Source of the DNA: Xanthomonas sp. CFBP 8443
GTDB lineage: Bacteria > Pseudomonadota > Gammaproteobacteria > Xanthomonadales > Xanthomonadaceae
Assembly: GCF_025666195.1 (NCBI RefSeq)
Contig: NZ_CP102592.1
Span: 2,976,001-3,040,000 of the forward strand
DNA: 64,000 nucleotides
Direction: 5' to 3'
Part shown: positions 17,124 through 21,550 of the stretch, in pieces
How the letters are laid out: each line of letters begins with the position of its first letter
How positions within the stretch are numbered: the stretch's first letter is position 1
The notes under the pieces: generated by a model
What the model was told of the DNA's origin: nothing
Database searches by the model: none
Seen by the model: the letters and a program-made list of their open reading frames with translations, nothing else
Program-made: the position numbers and the translations under genes

Positions 17124-17284
17124 CGGGACTCGGGACTCGGGACTCGGGACTCGGGACTCGGGACTCGGGACTCGGGACTCGGGACTCGGGACTCGGGACT
17201 CGGGACTCGGGACTCGGGACTCGGGACTCGGGACTCGGGACTCGGGACTCGGGACTCGGGACTCGGGACTCGGGACTCGGGACT
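17124..17284. repeat. Perfect tandem array: 23 copies of CGGGACT
   Basis: The 7-bp unit CGGGACT is repeated without a single change for 161 bp, starting three bases after the smpB stop. Seven is not divisible by three, so translations cycle frames and give artefactual SPESRVP-like repeats on the minus strand. Perfect arrays of this kind change length by slippage. Confidence 0.97.
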
Positions 17285-17460: not shown

Positions 17461-17489
17461 GCGCAAAAAAGCTGCGAACTTGCGAAAAT

Positions 17490-17521
17490 CCCGAGTCCCG
17501 AGTCCCGAGTCCCGAGTCCCG
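17490..17521. repeat. Four inverted copies of the heptamer (CCCGAGT)
   Basis: Four units of CCCGAGT, the complement of the smpB-side array, lie just outside the 3-prime end of the hydrolase-subtilase gene. Together with 17124-17284 they bracket the terminator and REP element in inverted orientation, so each gene of the converging pair ends in the same repeat. Confidence 0.9.
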
Positions 17522-17531
17522 GCAACAACCC

Positions 17532-20303
17532 TCACGTCGCCCCCAACATCCGCATCAGGCTCGGCAACCCCCGTCCCTGCATGTACGGATCGCGCTGCAG
17601 GTCCAGGCACTGCGCCAGCAACAATTGCTTGACCCGGTCCGGGAAGCCGATGAACTCGCGGCGCACCGACAGGAACGCGGCGATCAGCCCGGACACGTGC
17701 GCGGCGGCCATGCTGGTGCCGCTCATCTCCACCATCCAGGTGCTGGGGTCGCCAGCGTCGTAGCGGTGATGGGCCGAGACGATCTTCTCGCCCGGCGCCA
17801 CCAGGTCCGGCTTGTGCCGGCCATCGGCGGTCGGCCCGCGCGAGGAGAAATACGACACGCCGTAGCTGTGCGGGCTGCTCTTGTGCACCGAACCCACCGC
17901 CAGCGCCTCCTCTAGGTTGGCCGGATCGCCGATGCTCAGGTCCAGGTTCAACGGATAGGCCTGCCCGTCGTTCTGCATCAGCCAGGCCAGGCCTTCGTTG
18001 CCGGCCGCAATCACCACCACCACGCCCTGCCGCCATAGCCGGCGCAGTTCGTTGCACAGCGGGGTGAAGCCGCAGCCGTAGCTTTCCGCATCGAAATAGC
18101 CGCCCAGGCTCAGGTTGACCCCGTGGATGACCAGCTCACCGGCGCGCTCGTTGATCTCGGCGACCTGCTGCACGCCCTTGATGATCCACGAGTCGCGGCC
18201 GTTGCCGTCGTCGTCCAGCACCTTCAGTCCGTACAGCCGCGCCTGCGGCGCCATGCCGGCGAAACGCAGCGGCGTGGCCGGCGCCACCCCGGGCAGCGGC
18301 GCCTCGCACTGCCCGGCGATGATCCCGGCCACGTGGGTACCGTGGCCGTTGCCGTCCAGGGTGGCGAAGCCGGCGCCGTCGCGGCGGCGCAGTTCGCGGG
18401 CGCGGCCGCGCTGGGTGCAGTCCCACTGCGCCAGCACCGTTTCGGCAAGGCCCGGCTGCTGGAAATGCGGATGCGCCGCGGCGATGCCGCTGTCCAGCAC
18501 CGCCCAGCCGATGCCGGCGCCGAGCGCGCGATACGCCACCTGCGCCGCGTCGGCCTGCACAGTGCTGCGCGACTGGTAGATCAAGGCGCGCTTGCCGGCA
18601 TCGCGCCACAGCCGTTTCAGGCTCAGCGTGCGATAGCGGTCGCGCAGGCTCTCGATCTCGAACCGGGTCAGGCGCGCCGACACGTAGCGCTGCAGCGTGT
18701 CCTCCAGCTCGATCGCCGCGTCCAACGCATCGCCGTTCAGCCCGGTGGAGGCCTGGGTCAGCTCGCGCAGCGCGGCGACCAGTTCGTGCTTCAATTGCGC
18801 CGGCTCGCGCTCGCCCGGCAGGCGGTCCAGTTCGATCAGCACCTCGTGCCGATAGTCCGGCGCATGCGCCTCCAACTGGTCGGACAGGTCCTTGATCAGC
18901 ACCGGGTGCGCAATCGGCTGGTCGAAGCCCACGCCGACCGCGCGCCGCACCTCGGCGCGGACCTCGGGAATGGACAGGTAGCCGGAGCCGGAATGCGGGT
19001 TGCGTTGCCAATCCGGATTGATCCGCGACCCGGCGATGTTGTGGAAGCGCCCCTGCGCGTCGGCGATGTCGTCGCTTAGATCACCGTCCAGCGCCACCGG
19101 ATCGCGGCGCTCGGCGACGTTGACCCAGCGCTTCACGCAGGCCGGGAACGGCAGCTTCGGCGTGCCGGTCCACTGCTTGAACATGCTGCGCACCACCGGC
19201 AGGCCCAGCGGCGAGCCCAGCGTCAGCAGCAGCGACACCTCGCAGCCTTCGGCTTCGAACTCGCGCAGCACGTCGTAGGCGATCAGCGAGCCCTGGCTGT
19301 GCGCGACCACCACGAACGGACCGCCGCCGGCACGCATGCGCTGCAGCAGACTTTCGCGCATCTGCTCGCGCCGCGCCGGCACGAAGAAGAAATCGTGCAC
19401 GTCCTGCAGCAGCGCCGCGGAGATCAGCTTCAGCAGCATCCGGTTCAGCACGTCGATCGGCCCCTGCGCATGGATGCCGGTGGCGTCGGGCGCGGCGGTC
19501 TGCACTTCGTCCAGCAGTTGCTGCAGGAATGCGCGCTCCACATCGCTGCCGGCCAGCGTCTCGGCCAACTGGCGCAGATCGGCCATCTGCGGCACCACGC
19601 CCAGCGCACCGAGCACGCGCTGCTCGGCCTGGTTCAGCGCCGGGCCGCGATCCTGGTCCTGGCAGCTGCCCGGCTCCGGCGACGGATAGCGCTCGCGGCT
19701 GACCCAGTACGCCAGGCGCGTGCGCTCGCCCATCTCCCGGCCGAACAAGGCGCGATCCCACTGGCAGCGCAGCACCTCGGCCGGCGGCTTGTTGCCGATG
19801 CCATGGATGTAGACGACCGTCCGCGCCCGCCCCTGCGCCAGCGAGCCTTCGCCGGTGGCCTTGGGCCGGAGCGTGAGTGGGGGCGCCACGGACGCGGCAG
19901 CGGCGACAGGTCCACCGTCAGGAGAGGGCGGCTGGCGGCTGGCTGCTTTGGCTGCTTTGGCTGCTTTGGCTGTCTTGGCCGCCTTGGCCGTCTTGTCTGT
20001 CTCGGCCGTTCTGGACTTGCCTGCTACGGGCTTGGAGCTCGCCAATGGCTTCGCTGGGACGGGCCGGACCCGCCTACCCGGTCCGGCGGCGGCCTGTTCG
20101 GCGACCAGGTCCCGGGCCCGCTTCGCACCGGCCTTCTTCGGTGCAGTTTTCTTGGGCACCACCTTTTTTGCCGAAACGCCGCGCTTCGTGGGCGCGCGGC
20201 CGGCCGGCGGGGTCGCTTCTGCCGGTTTTGCCGCGGGCGCCGTAGCGGGTGCTCGCTTCCGGTCGCGCCCGCCGTCGCGCGCACGCTGTTGCCTGGTTGC
20301 CAT
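17532..20303 (-). CDS. Fused alpha/beta hydrolase and subtilisin-like protease
   Basis: A 923-residue three-part protein. Residues 1-150 are a Lys/Ala/Pro-rich, histone-H1-like tail with KAAK repeats (104-121). Residues 160-460 look like a lipase-type alpha/beta hydrolase: VVYIHGIGNK (163-172), nucleophile elbow AHSQGS with Ser336, candidate Asp401 in ERRDP and His437 in NPHSGSGYL. A helical linker (about 470-580) leads to an S8 protease: Asp604 (VLDSG), His654 (GNGHGTHVAG), oxyanion Asn769 (AAGNEG) and Ser864 (SGTSMAAAH). Both catalytic sets appear intact. No signal peptide or propeptide is visible, so it is probably cytosolic. ATG 20303 has GGAG seven bases upstream. It lies alone between converging smpB and divergent ssrA. 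Substrates are unknown. Confidence 0.88.
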   Translation of the reverse strand: MATRQQRARDGGRDRKRAPATAPAAKPAEATPPAGRAPTKRGVSAKKVVPKKTAPKKAGAKRARDLVAEQAAAGPGRRVRPVPAKPLASSKPVAGKSRTAETDKTAKAAKTAKAAKAAKAASRQPPSPDGGPVAAAASVAPPLTLRPKATGEGSLAQGRARTVVYIHGIGNKPPAEVLRCQWDRALFGREMGERTRLAYWVSRERYPSPEPGSCQDQDRGPALNQAEQRVLGALGVVPQMADLRQLAETLAGSDVERAFLQQLLDEVQTAAPDATGIHAQGPIDVLNRMLLKLISAALLQDVHDFFFVPARREQMRESLLQRMRAGGGPFVVVAHSQGSLIAYDVLREFEAEGCEVSLLLTLGSPLGLPVVRSMFKQWTGTPKLPFPACVKRWVNVAERRDPVALDGDLSDDIADAQGRFHNIAGSRINPDWQRNPHSGSGYLSIPEVRAEVRRAVGVGFDQPIAHPVLIKDLSDQLEAHAPDYRHEVLIELDRLPGEREPAQLKHELVAALRELTQASTGLNGDALDAAIELEDTLQRYVSARLTRFEIESLRDRYRTLSLKRLWRDAGKRALIYQSRSTVQADAAQVAYRALGAGIGWAVLDSGIAAAHPHFQQPGLAETVLAQWDCTQRGRARELRRRDGAGFATLDGNGHGTHVAGIIAGQCEAPLPGVAPATPLRFAGMAPQARLYGLKVLDDDGNGRDSWIIKGVQQVAEINERAGELVIHGVNLSLGGYFDAESYGCGFTPLCNELRRLWRQGVVVVIAAGNEGLAWLMQNDGQAYPLNLDLSIGDPANLEEALAVGSVHKSSPHSYGVSYFSSRGPTADGRHKPDLVAPGEKIVSAHHRYDAGDPSTWMVEMSGTSMAAAHVSGLIAAFLSVRREFIGFPDRVKQLLLAQCLDLQRDPYMQGRGLPSLMRMLGAT

Positions 20304-20884: not shown

Positions 20885-21550
20885 TTGTGCCCGCCATCGA
20901 CGATGGCTCGCCTCACCGGCACAGTGATACGCCTGCGGGCGCCTTCGAAATTGGGTTGGCATACCGCGGAATGATCGCGACGGCAGCCTTTGCAGCGAAC
21001 ATCATCGTCACCGCGTCGGTTTGACGCTGCACATGAGCGGATCGAGGGGCTGCCAGTCGGTGCGAGCAGCGCCGTAGCGCACGGCGCAGCTGAAGCGTGC
21101 GAGGCTGCCCCGGGCAGTGGGGGCAGCCACAACACGTCAAAACGAAGATGGTCCAGCCGCGGATACCTGCACCCTTGAAGCAGCCCCGAGATTTACCTAC
21201 GGCCGCACAGCTGGTGACGCGAGCATGCGACCGGGACTGTTACGACCATGTCCTCGCCGCAGTCGGAACGACGCGCGCACTCAGCGCGGATCCTTCTGGT
21301 TCTGCGTCACGGATCCCGACATCCCCGGCTTGAAGTAGCTGAAGTCGCTGTCTTTCTCGCCGGTGAAGGTCGCACCGGTAAGAGGATGCTTCCAAACTTG
21401 CGACGAGGCGATCAGGGCTTCCTGCCCTGCCCTGCCATGCCGGGACGCGACCGGCAACCGAGGCTTGAGGCCCCGATGCGCTGCCCCGGCGACATGCCCA
21501 TCACGCATGGCATGTACGGTGATGCCATCGATTCCCGACAACGGTGTGCC
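20885..21550. other. Gene-poor zone downstream of tmRNA with a possible gene remnant
   Basis: No complete gene is convincing here. On the minus strand, 21281-21400 reads as a coherent C-terminus (VWKHPLTGATFTGEKDSDF, then SYFKPGMSGSVTQNQKDPR and a stop), with base composition unlike the flanking noise and no sensible upstream extension. It may be the tail of a lost gene. The 3-prime ends of ssrA genes are common integration sites, but I see no integrase, no second copy of the ssrA 3-prime end and no att repeat. Confidence 0.4.

What the first reader, a model, noticed from the sequence alone, without database searches (positions are those of the whole stretch)
17532..20303. Alpha/beta hydrolase fused to a subtilisin protease, without signal peptide
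One 923-residue chain carries an H1-like basic tail, a lipase-type domain with a plausible Ser336/Asp401/His437 set and a complete S8 protease with Asp604/His654/Asn769/Ser864. Subtilases are normally secreted and made as precursors; here no signal or propeptide is seen, so the enzyme would be active or held in check inside the cell. An acylhydrolase coupled to a protease is the kind of arrangement expected in effector or defence proteins. This is the best candidate for an undescribed system in the window.
Basis: partly seen in the sequence, partly recalled or inferred. Interest (0 to 1): 0.8.

Follow-up and report, generated by a model that had tools for sequence, protein, structure and literature searches.

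The report
Hydrolase–protease fusion of gasdermin-linked family
A Xanthomonas-type bacterium carries one intracellular protein that joins a fat-cutting-type enzyme to a protein-cutting enzyme; two relatives of it are fused to gasdermin, the pore-maker of inflammatory cell death, so it may be a self-contained cell-death or defence enzyme, which remains to be tested.

Summary
The 923-aa protein is: disordered basic tail (1-155), alpha/beta-hydrolase (156-483), a domain folding like a subtilisin I9 propeptide (484-575), S8 protease (576-923). All seven catalytic residues are invariant in 53 of 53 aligned relatives; the three folded domains are under purifying selection. The family is large and, in ten literature searches, undescribed. 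In its genus it is near-core (17 of 20 genomes full length), usually between smpB and ssrA. Relatives give the lead: two family members carry an N-terminal bacterial gasdermin (7n51, E 2.4e-42), and sister S8 genes stand 7-13 bp before an alpha/beta-hydrolase or an Avs1a/LmuA-type MBL gene, or are fused to TIR. No gasdermin was found near the window gene or in 20 genus genomes, but that control did not ring. Best reading: a cytosolic hydrolase held in check and activated by its own protease, as a death or defence effector. Architecture is shown; trigger, cut sites, substrate and phenotype are inferred.

The parts
17532..20303 (-). whole gene, 923 aa, start ATG at 20303, stop at 17532
   Evidence: one uninterrupted match in the own genome with this protein as query
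19839..20303 (-). residues 1-155: disordered, Lys/Arg/Ala-rich tail, fast evolving; in two relatives a gasdermin stands in this position
   Evidence: pLDDT 30-40 for residues 1-150; net charge +27; differences at all codon positions; P0139 and P0161
18855..19838 (-). residues 156-483: alpha/beta-hydrolase, lipase type; Ser336 at 19296-19298, Asp401 at 19101-19103, His437 at 18993-18995
   Evidence: invariant triad 53 of 53; fold model and VIA-align
19464..19484 (-). residues 274-280: low-confidence loop inside the helical lid of the hydrolase; candidate (unproven) proteolysis site
   Evidence: pLDDT under 50 in both models
18579..18854 (-). residues 484-575: I9-like propeptide domain, with conserved W566, K571, L574 near the predicted junction with the protease
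   Evidence: fold alignment to pro-subtilisins from residue 484; W566 and K571 53 of 53, L574 51 of 53; not detected by sequence
17535..18578 (-). residues 576-923: S8 protease; Asp604 at 18492-18494, His654 at 18342-18344, Asn769 at 17997-17999, Ser864 at 17712-17714
   Evidence: Pfam 8.8e-44; PADLOC subtilase 1.1e-71; invariant residues
20453..20804 (+). ssrA (tmRNA), divergent neighbour, 149 bp from the start codon
16569..17120 (+). smpB (conserved part), convergent neighbour
   Evidence: 58 of 60 family genomes match this stretch; the name smpB is recalled from the sequence, no call names it
17124..17284 (.). 23 copies of CGGGACT between smpB and the gene's 3' end

Best explanation
It is a cytosolic two-enzyme protein: a lipase-type alpha/beta-hydrolase joined through a propeptide-like inhibitor/chaperone domain to a subtilisin protease of an S8 clade whose other members go together with gasdermins, MBL proteins, separate hydrolases or a TIR domain. 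Most likely the I9-like domain keeps the protease silent; on an unknown trigger the protease cuts near the I9/protease junction (about residues 571-578) and/or in the hydrolase lid (274-280), which frees the hydrolase to attack lipids or acyl groups and stops the cell. Where relatives use a gasdermin pore as the executioner, this lineage would use the built-in hydrolase. Shown here: architecture, invariance, selection, clade and partners. Inferred: cytosolic zymogen state, cut sites, substrate, trigger, death or defence phenotype.
For: Seven catalytic residues invariant in 53 of 53 relatives. Third-position excess in hydrolase, I9-like and S8 parts against four Xanthomonas loci. The ten top fold matches over the C-terminal half are pro-forms of S8 enzymes. 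S8 tree: fused family one group (98/99); with the paired and TIR-fused sisters it is separated from seven generic S8 rows by 100/98; profile bits 234-617 against 65-132, the profile being made from fused rows. Gasdermin fused to the same chain in P0139 (PADLOC 1.3e-73; solved gasdermin 7n51 2.4e-42) and P0161 (9.1e-64), 2 of 213 proteins with the hydrolase motif among 344 in hand. Sister S8 genes followed 7-13 bp downstream by an alpha/beta-hydrolase (8 aligned, plus 1 by position and size) or an Avs1a/LmuA-like MBL gene (5): 14 of 14 stand-alone loci opened; 1 more is fused to TIR; 0 of 6 generic S8 loci have such a partner by annotation. Published precedent: partner proteases activate gated MBL nucleases (PMC12799240); the fungal gasdermin HET-Q1 is likely cut by the subtilisin-like HET-Q2 (PMC12881547).
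Against: No gasdermin in the window or the loci held or in 20 genus genomes (control silent). The gene is near-core, in a housekeeping locus, with no full-length match in plasmids or phages, unlike typical mobile defence genes; neighbours of the fused gene in an alphaproteobacterium (L033) and at another place within the family (L035) are not defence genes by Pfam name. Most hydrolase-paired rhizobial loci sit beside thiamine, transport or transfer genes. The paired hydrolase is not detectably the same subfamily as the fused one (hhalign probability 5.6). I9 is not detected by sequence, and the junction 573-584 and parts of the protease are poorly modelled. No activity or phenotype data exist here.
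Confidence: 0.42

Rival explanations
1. Housekeeping intracellular protease-hydrolase, possibly serving protein quality control together with trans-translation (smpB, ssrA), kept for growth or stress and not for death or defence.
For: Conserved place between smpB and ssrA: tmRNA beside the gene in 18 of 19 loci and smpB within 0.8 kb on the other side in 18 of 19; 17 of 20 genus genomes full length.
Against: In an alphaproteobacterium (L033), and in one genome of the same family (L035), no tmRNA or smpB is near the gene; 8 of 30 smpB loci returned for the family have ssrA 97-260 bp from smpB, too close for a gene between; absent from 2 and broken in 1 of 20 genus genomes; relatives carry gasdermin, MBL or TIR partners.
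Confidence: 0.2
2. The protease acts on a separate target encoded elsewhere (an undetected gasdermin-like or other pore protein), and the hydrolase domain is a sensor or regulator, not the executioner.
For: Gasdermin fusions P0139 and P0161 keep the hydrolase as well, so the hydrolase is not simply a substitute for gasdermin; gasdermin genome searches had silent controls.
Against: No gasdermin in the flanks; the hydrolase triad is invariant, which fits catalysis better than a pure sensor.
Confidence: 0.23
3. An exported enzyme (non-classical or specialised secretion) acting outside the cell, for example on other microbes or plant tissue.
For: Subtilases and lipases are usually exported (established knowledge); the nearest named relatives are Xanthomonas, a plant-associated genus.
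Against: No signal peptide or membrane helix by hydropathy; long lysine/arginine-rich N terminus; some sister S8 genes stand beside genes of intracellular immune systems (cyclase, E2, TIR).
Confidence: 0.08

Closest known systems
Bacterial gasdermin (bGSDM) systems with associated proteases; PADLOC models bGSDM (PDLC02986) and subtilase (PDLC03014)
   Same: Two family members are gasdermin-hydrolase-S8 in one chain; the window protein matches the subtilase model at 1.1e-71, and in L033, P0139, P0155 and P0161 that model starts before the protease, in or near the hydrolase, and runs to the end of the S8 domain.
   Different: No gasdermin found with the window gene or in its genus; the executioner would be the hydrolase. 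That PADLOC uses this model within its gasdermin system is my recollection, not a call.
Nuclease-protease pairs of Hachiman, AVAST, Lamassu, DRT and Canu (PMC12799240: abstract with introduction, section 8 and found passages read)
   Same: A protease coupled to a hydrolytic effector; sister S8 genes stand next to MBL genes matching LmuA, Avs1a and RTasMBL.
   Different: Trypsin or caspase proteases in what I read, S8 here; a nuclease there, a lipase-type hydrolase in the same chain here. The paper mentions nuclease relatives with 'other diverse' protease families (its fig. S2, not seen), which may include S8.
Fungal HET-Q1/HET-Q2 (PMC12881547: found passages read)
   Same: A subtilisin-like protease controls a gasdermin.
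   Different: Separate genes, fungal, allorecognition; no hydrolase named in the passages read.
Pro-subtilisins such as pro-Tk-subtilisin (2z2z, 2e1p) and pro-subtilisin E (3whi)
   Different: Exported precursors (established knowledge); here no signal peptide and a hydrolase before the propeptide.
[not shown]
   Same: Alpha/beta-hydrolase fold with lid.

Membership tests
Peptidase S8 (subtilase) | Pfam profile above cut-off | tested here: met
   150.4 bits against a cut-off of 21.8
Peptidase S8 (subtilase) | Asp/His/Ser triad and oxyanion Asn | tested here: met
   D604, H654, N769, S864 in 53 of 53 rows
Alpha/beta-hydrolase superfamily | Ser-Asp-His set in the right order on the right fold | tested here: met
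   [not shown]
A named Pfam alpha/beta-hydrolase family (Abhydrolase_6, Thioesterase, PGAP1) | Profile score above the curated cut-off | tested here: not met
   best 19.1 of 26.3 bits
Inhibitor_I9 (subtilisin propeptide) | Sequence profile match | tested here: not met
   not among the families matched by 15 members at E up to 10; no PDB propeptide by profile. So it folds like I9; it is not filed as a member
Inhibitor_I9 (subtilisin propeptide) | Propeptide fold placed in front of the S8 domain | tested here: met
   VIA alignment of 484-923 to unprocessed pro-forms, on a model with block pLDDT 73-93 over 481-570 but 41 over 571-580
Bacterial gasdermin system | Gasdermin gene or domain beside the protease (window locus) | tested here: not met
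   no hit in window or loci held with a profile of the P0139 and P0161 N termini
Bacterial gasdermin system | Gasdermin anywhere in the genome | tested here: inconclusive
   0 of 20 genus genomes, but the control rang in 0 of 14
Bacterial gasdermin system | Protease of the family that accompanies gasdermins | tested here: met
   same chain fused to gasdermin in P0139 and P0161; PADLOC subtilase 1.1e-71
Nuclease-protease pair | MBL nuclease partner | tested here: not met
   neighbours of the window gene are smpB and ssrA; MBL partner present in 5 sister S8 loci
Nuclease-protease pair | Protease activates the partner enzyme by cleavage | not testable with these tools
   needs biochemistry

The most novel reading that the evidence does not exclude
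Xanthomonas and its kin keep a domesticated, gasdermin-free version of bacterial pyroptosis: a single chain that contains the executioner (a membrane-attacking lipase), its gate (an I9-like propeptide) and its activating subtilisin, fixed beside ssrA, where prophages appear to attach, as a near-core abortive-infection or cell-death switch. Across the family the N-terminal position is a slot that holds a gasdermin or a disordered basic tail.
Probability: 0.27. Interest if true: 0.85.

Novelty: new variant of a known kind. Interest (0 to 1): 0.6.

Why it matters
It links a large family that databases call 'S8 family peptidase' or 'subtilisin family serine protease' to gasdermin-type and nuclease-protease immunity, and suggests that an executioner and its activating protease can live in one polypeptide. 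If true, subtilisins join trypsins and caspases as recurrent activators of bacterial death effectors, a lipase can stand where a gasdermin pore stands elsewhere, and a gene near-core in its genus (17 of 20 genomes) gets a testable function. The gasdermin-hydrolase-protease chains P0139 and P0161 make the question directly testable by in vitro self-cleavage.

Tried and rejected
Considered and rejected: a chance open frame (full-length homologues; codon-position signal); a mobile defence island at this place (conserved smpB-gene-ssrA order; no full-length match in plasmids or phages); one gene-fission or fusion event linking the fused and the paired hydrolase (hhalign probability 5.6, so separate recruitment is likelier); an intracellular subtilisin with its inhibitory LIPY motif (motif recalled and named in a PDB title; I see none in 560-590); a functional tie to tmRNA as the main reading (L033 and L035 are elsewhere).

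Led nowhere: gasdermin searches of 20 genus genomes, 398 Pseudomonadota genomes and plasmids, the first two with silent controls; profile searches for I9; pattern scan for promoters (none found); the search with stand-alone S8 proteins in 385 alphaproteobacterial genomes, which gave only the one fused gene and one S8 that the tree puts with the generic ones (2-3 candidates per genome were scored, so recall is limited, as); viral scan with P0139. The local Pfam scan of P0139 and P0161 did not list a gasdermin family, although the precomputed annotation gives PF26164 to both; the gasdermin call rests on PADLOC and PDB. Whether the hydrolase covers the protease site, or the triad residues are close in space, could not be measured: no coordinates or error matrix are given, and parts of the protease (769-793, 806-841) are poorly modelled. 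Literature: ten searches listed no paper on the fusion; the library lacks most subscription papers, and three gasdermin papers that I looked up were not held, so what I say of bacterial gasdermins beyond PMC12881547 is recalled.

Full report
WHAT IS THERE. The open frame 17532-20303 exists and encodes 923 residues, on the minus strand. With this protein as query it is the one match in the 5.24-Mb genome; the family profile finds two weaker matches besides (3 in all). The genus is Xanthomonas by nearest named relatives; the genome itself is unnamed. Pfam finds Peptidase_S8 at 601-909 (8.8e-44) and only sub-threshold alpha/beta-hydrolase matches at about 313-435. PADLOC finds its 'subtilase' model (1.1e-71) and weaker IetS matches. 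There is no signal peptide or membrane helix by hydropathy. Third-position GC of the core (0.91) lies within the range of five neighbouring genes (0.87-0.95); the tail is lower (0.74).

CONSERVATION. Search with residues 150-923: 6967 of 7998 scored candidates at E <= 0.001 (many may match the S8 part only); of the 120 listed, 119 cover at least 90% of the query part. A second search from a Bryobacteraceae member lists 120, itself included, that all cover at least 90%, with names including Sinorhizobium, Ensifer, Methylocystis, Azospirillum, Reyranella, Sphingomonas, Blastocatellia and NC10. In the 53-row alignment S336, D401, H437, D604, H654, N769 and S864 are invariant. Against four Xanthomonas loci, differences at third positions exceed those at second positions about 2.3- to 9-fold in the hydrolase, I9-like and S8 parts, and only about 1.2- to 1.5-fold in the tail. 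So both enzymes are under selection as enzymes.

DISTRIBUTION AND PLACE. Full length in 17 of 20 genomes of the genus, a fragment in 1, none in 2 small ones (3.5 and 3.7 Mb); full length in 7 of 60 in the family, three of them of the own genus; 1 of 398 Pseudomonadota, the own genome, and 1 of 385 alphaproteobacteria, the last two with only 2 candidates scored per genome. In 19 contig loci a tmRNA gene is next to it in 18 (the other is a 4.7-kb contig) and smpB lies within 0.8 kb on the other side in 18 (L017 has a 5.7-kb interval). Of 30 smpB loci returned for the family, 6 have the gene and 8 have ssrA 97-260 bp from smpB; the other 16 are arranged otherwise or show no tmRNA in the stretch. 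L033 and L035 have neither nearby. Pseudoxanthomonas gei keeps only a hydrolase frame of 366 aa at the locus. Two IMG/VR contigs end in this gene with the tmRNA gene beside it, as expected if ssrA is a prophage attachment site and the gene is host flank. No plasmid or phage record covers 80% of the fused query (380 and 49 records matched in part).

RELATIVES THAT SPEAK TO FUNCTION. Plasmid hits with 34-47% identity to the S8 part lack the hydrolase domain. Of 21 opened, 14 fall in the same S8 clade by the tree, and H13 is counted with them by identity. Nine are followed 9-13 bp downstream by an alpha/beta-hydrolase-type gene (Sinorhizobium, Rhizobium, Rhodococcus; 8 aligned, with invariant GHSFG; 1 by position and size); Pfam support for these is below cut-off. 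Five are followed 7-13 bp downstream by an MBL gene matching LmuA (2e-46 to 7e-53), Avs1a and RTasMBL (Methylorubrum, S. meliloti, Miltoncostaea, R. phaseoli, Paroceanicella). One is fused to a C-terminal TIR domain. Surroundings include cyclase, E2 and TIR genes (L024), patatin (L025, L076), a Tle1-like phospholipase (L073) and an FRG-pYEATS protein (L075); most rhizobial hydrolase-paired ones sit beside thiamine, transport or transfer genes instead. The six generic S8 loci have no such partner by annotation. The tree gives the fused family as one group (98/99), MBL-paired 100/99, hydrolase-paired 94/81, and the whole clade apart from generic S8 (100/98); long branches among the outgroups and the TIR fusion are a caveat. 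The fused and the paired hydrolases are not detectably one subfamily, so a hydrolase was probably coupled to this protease more than once.

GASDERMIN. P0139 (1085 aa) and P0161 (1111 aa), full-length family members with no organism named (source 'lgn'), have an N-terminal bacterial gasdermin: PADLOC bGSDM 1.3e-73 and 9.1e-64, precomputed Pfam PF26164 (not listed by the local Pfam scan), and for P0139 the solved gasdermins 7n51 (2.4e-42) and 8sl0 (1.5e-39). They are 2 of 213 proteins with the hydrolase motif among 344 in hand. In L033 the PADLOC subtilase model begins at residue 83, just after the hydrolase's HGIGNKP motif at 69, and runs to the end of the S8 domain, so that model was probably built on such fusions. 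No gasdermin was found in the window or the loci held or in 20 genus genomes (silent control).

HOW IT MOST LIKELY WORKS. Shown: four-part architecture, invariance, selection, clade, partners. Inferred from pro-subtilisins: the I9-like domain restrains or folds the protease, with a cut near 571-578. Inferred from PMC12799240 (abstract with introduction, section 8, passages): protease and partner form a zymogen cascade, the partner's active site being freed by cutting a disordered insertion; the lid loop 274-280 is a candidate. Inferred from the fold: the hydrolase acts on lipid or acyl esters. Not known: the trigger, and whether the outcome is death, defence or housekeeping.

VERDICT. Not an ordinary secreted subtilisin and not a lone curiosity: a widespread family, undescribed in the papers searched, that reaches into gasdermin and nuclease-protease immunity. 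I file it as a subtilase and an alpha/beta-hydrolase; I do not file the window locus as a gasdermin system, because the gasdermin was looked for at the locus and not found.

Noticed in passing
17124-17284 and 17489-17521: 23 copies of a 7-bp unit (CGGGACT) follow smpB, and the related unit in the other orientation precedes the gene's stop; palindromes lie between them by eye (printout).
   Followed up: no
21112-21215: Match to the Xanthomonas small RNA sX2 (Rfam RF02222, 46.7 bits, minus strand), close to ssrA.
   Followed up: no
L083 and L084, 7330-10313: Two IMG/VR contigs end in a 72%-identical homologue with the tmRNA gene beside it; fits ssrA as a prophage attachment site with this gene as host flank.
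   Followed up: partly
L074:2665-4623: A Rhizobium S8 protease of the same clade fused to a C-terminal TIR domain (PF13676, 2.1e-8).
   Followed up: partly
L073:2593-6731: S8 protease, LmuA/Avs1a-like MBL protein and Tle1-like phospholipase in a row on a Miltoncostaea plasmid: a possible three-gene effector operon.
   Followed up: partly
P0170 and P0191, N-terminal ~140 residues: Two family members share an extra N-terminal region (motif VSVDGEP) in the position where others carry a gasdermin or a basic tail.
   Followed up: no
L019:7965-9065: Pseudoxanthomonas gei keeps a hydrolase-only frame at the same locus; the I9-like and protease parts are gone from there.
   Followed up: partly
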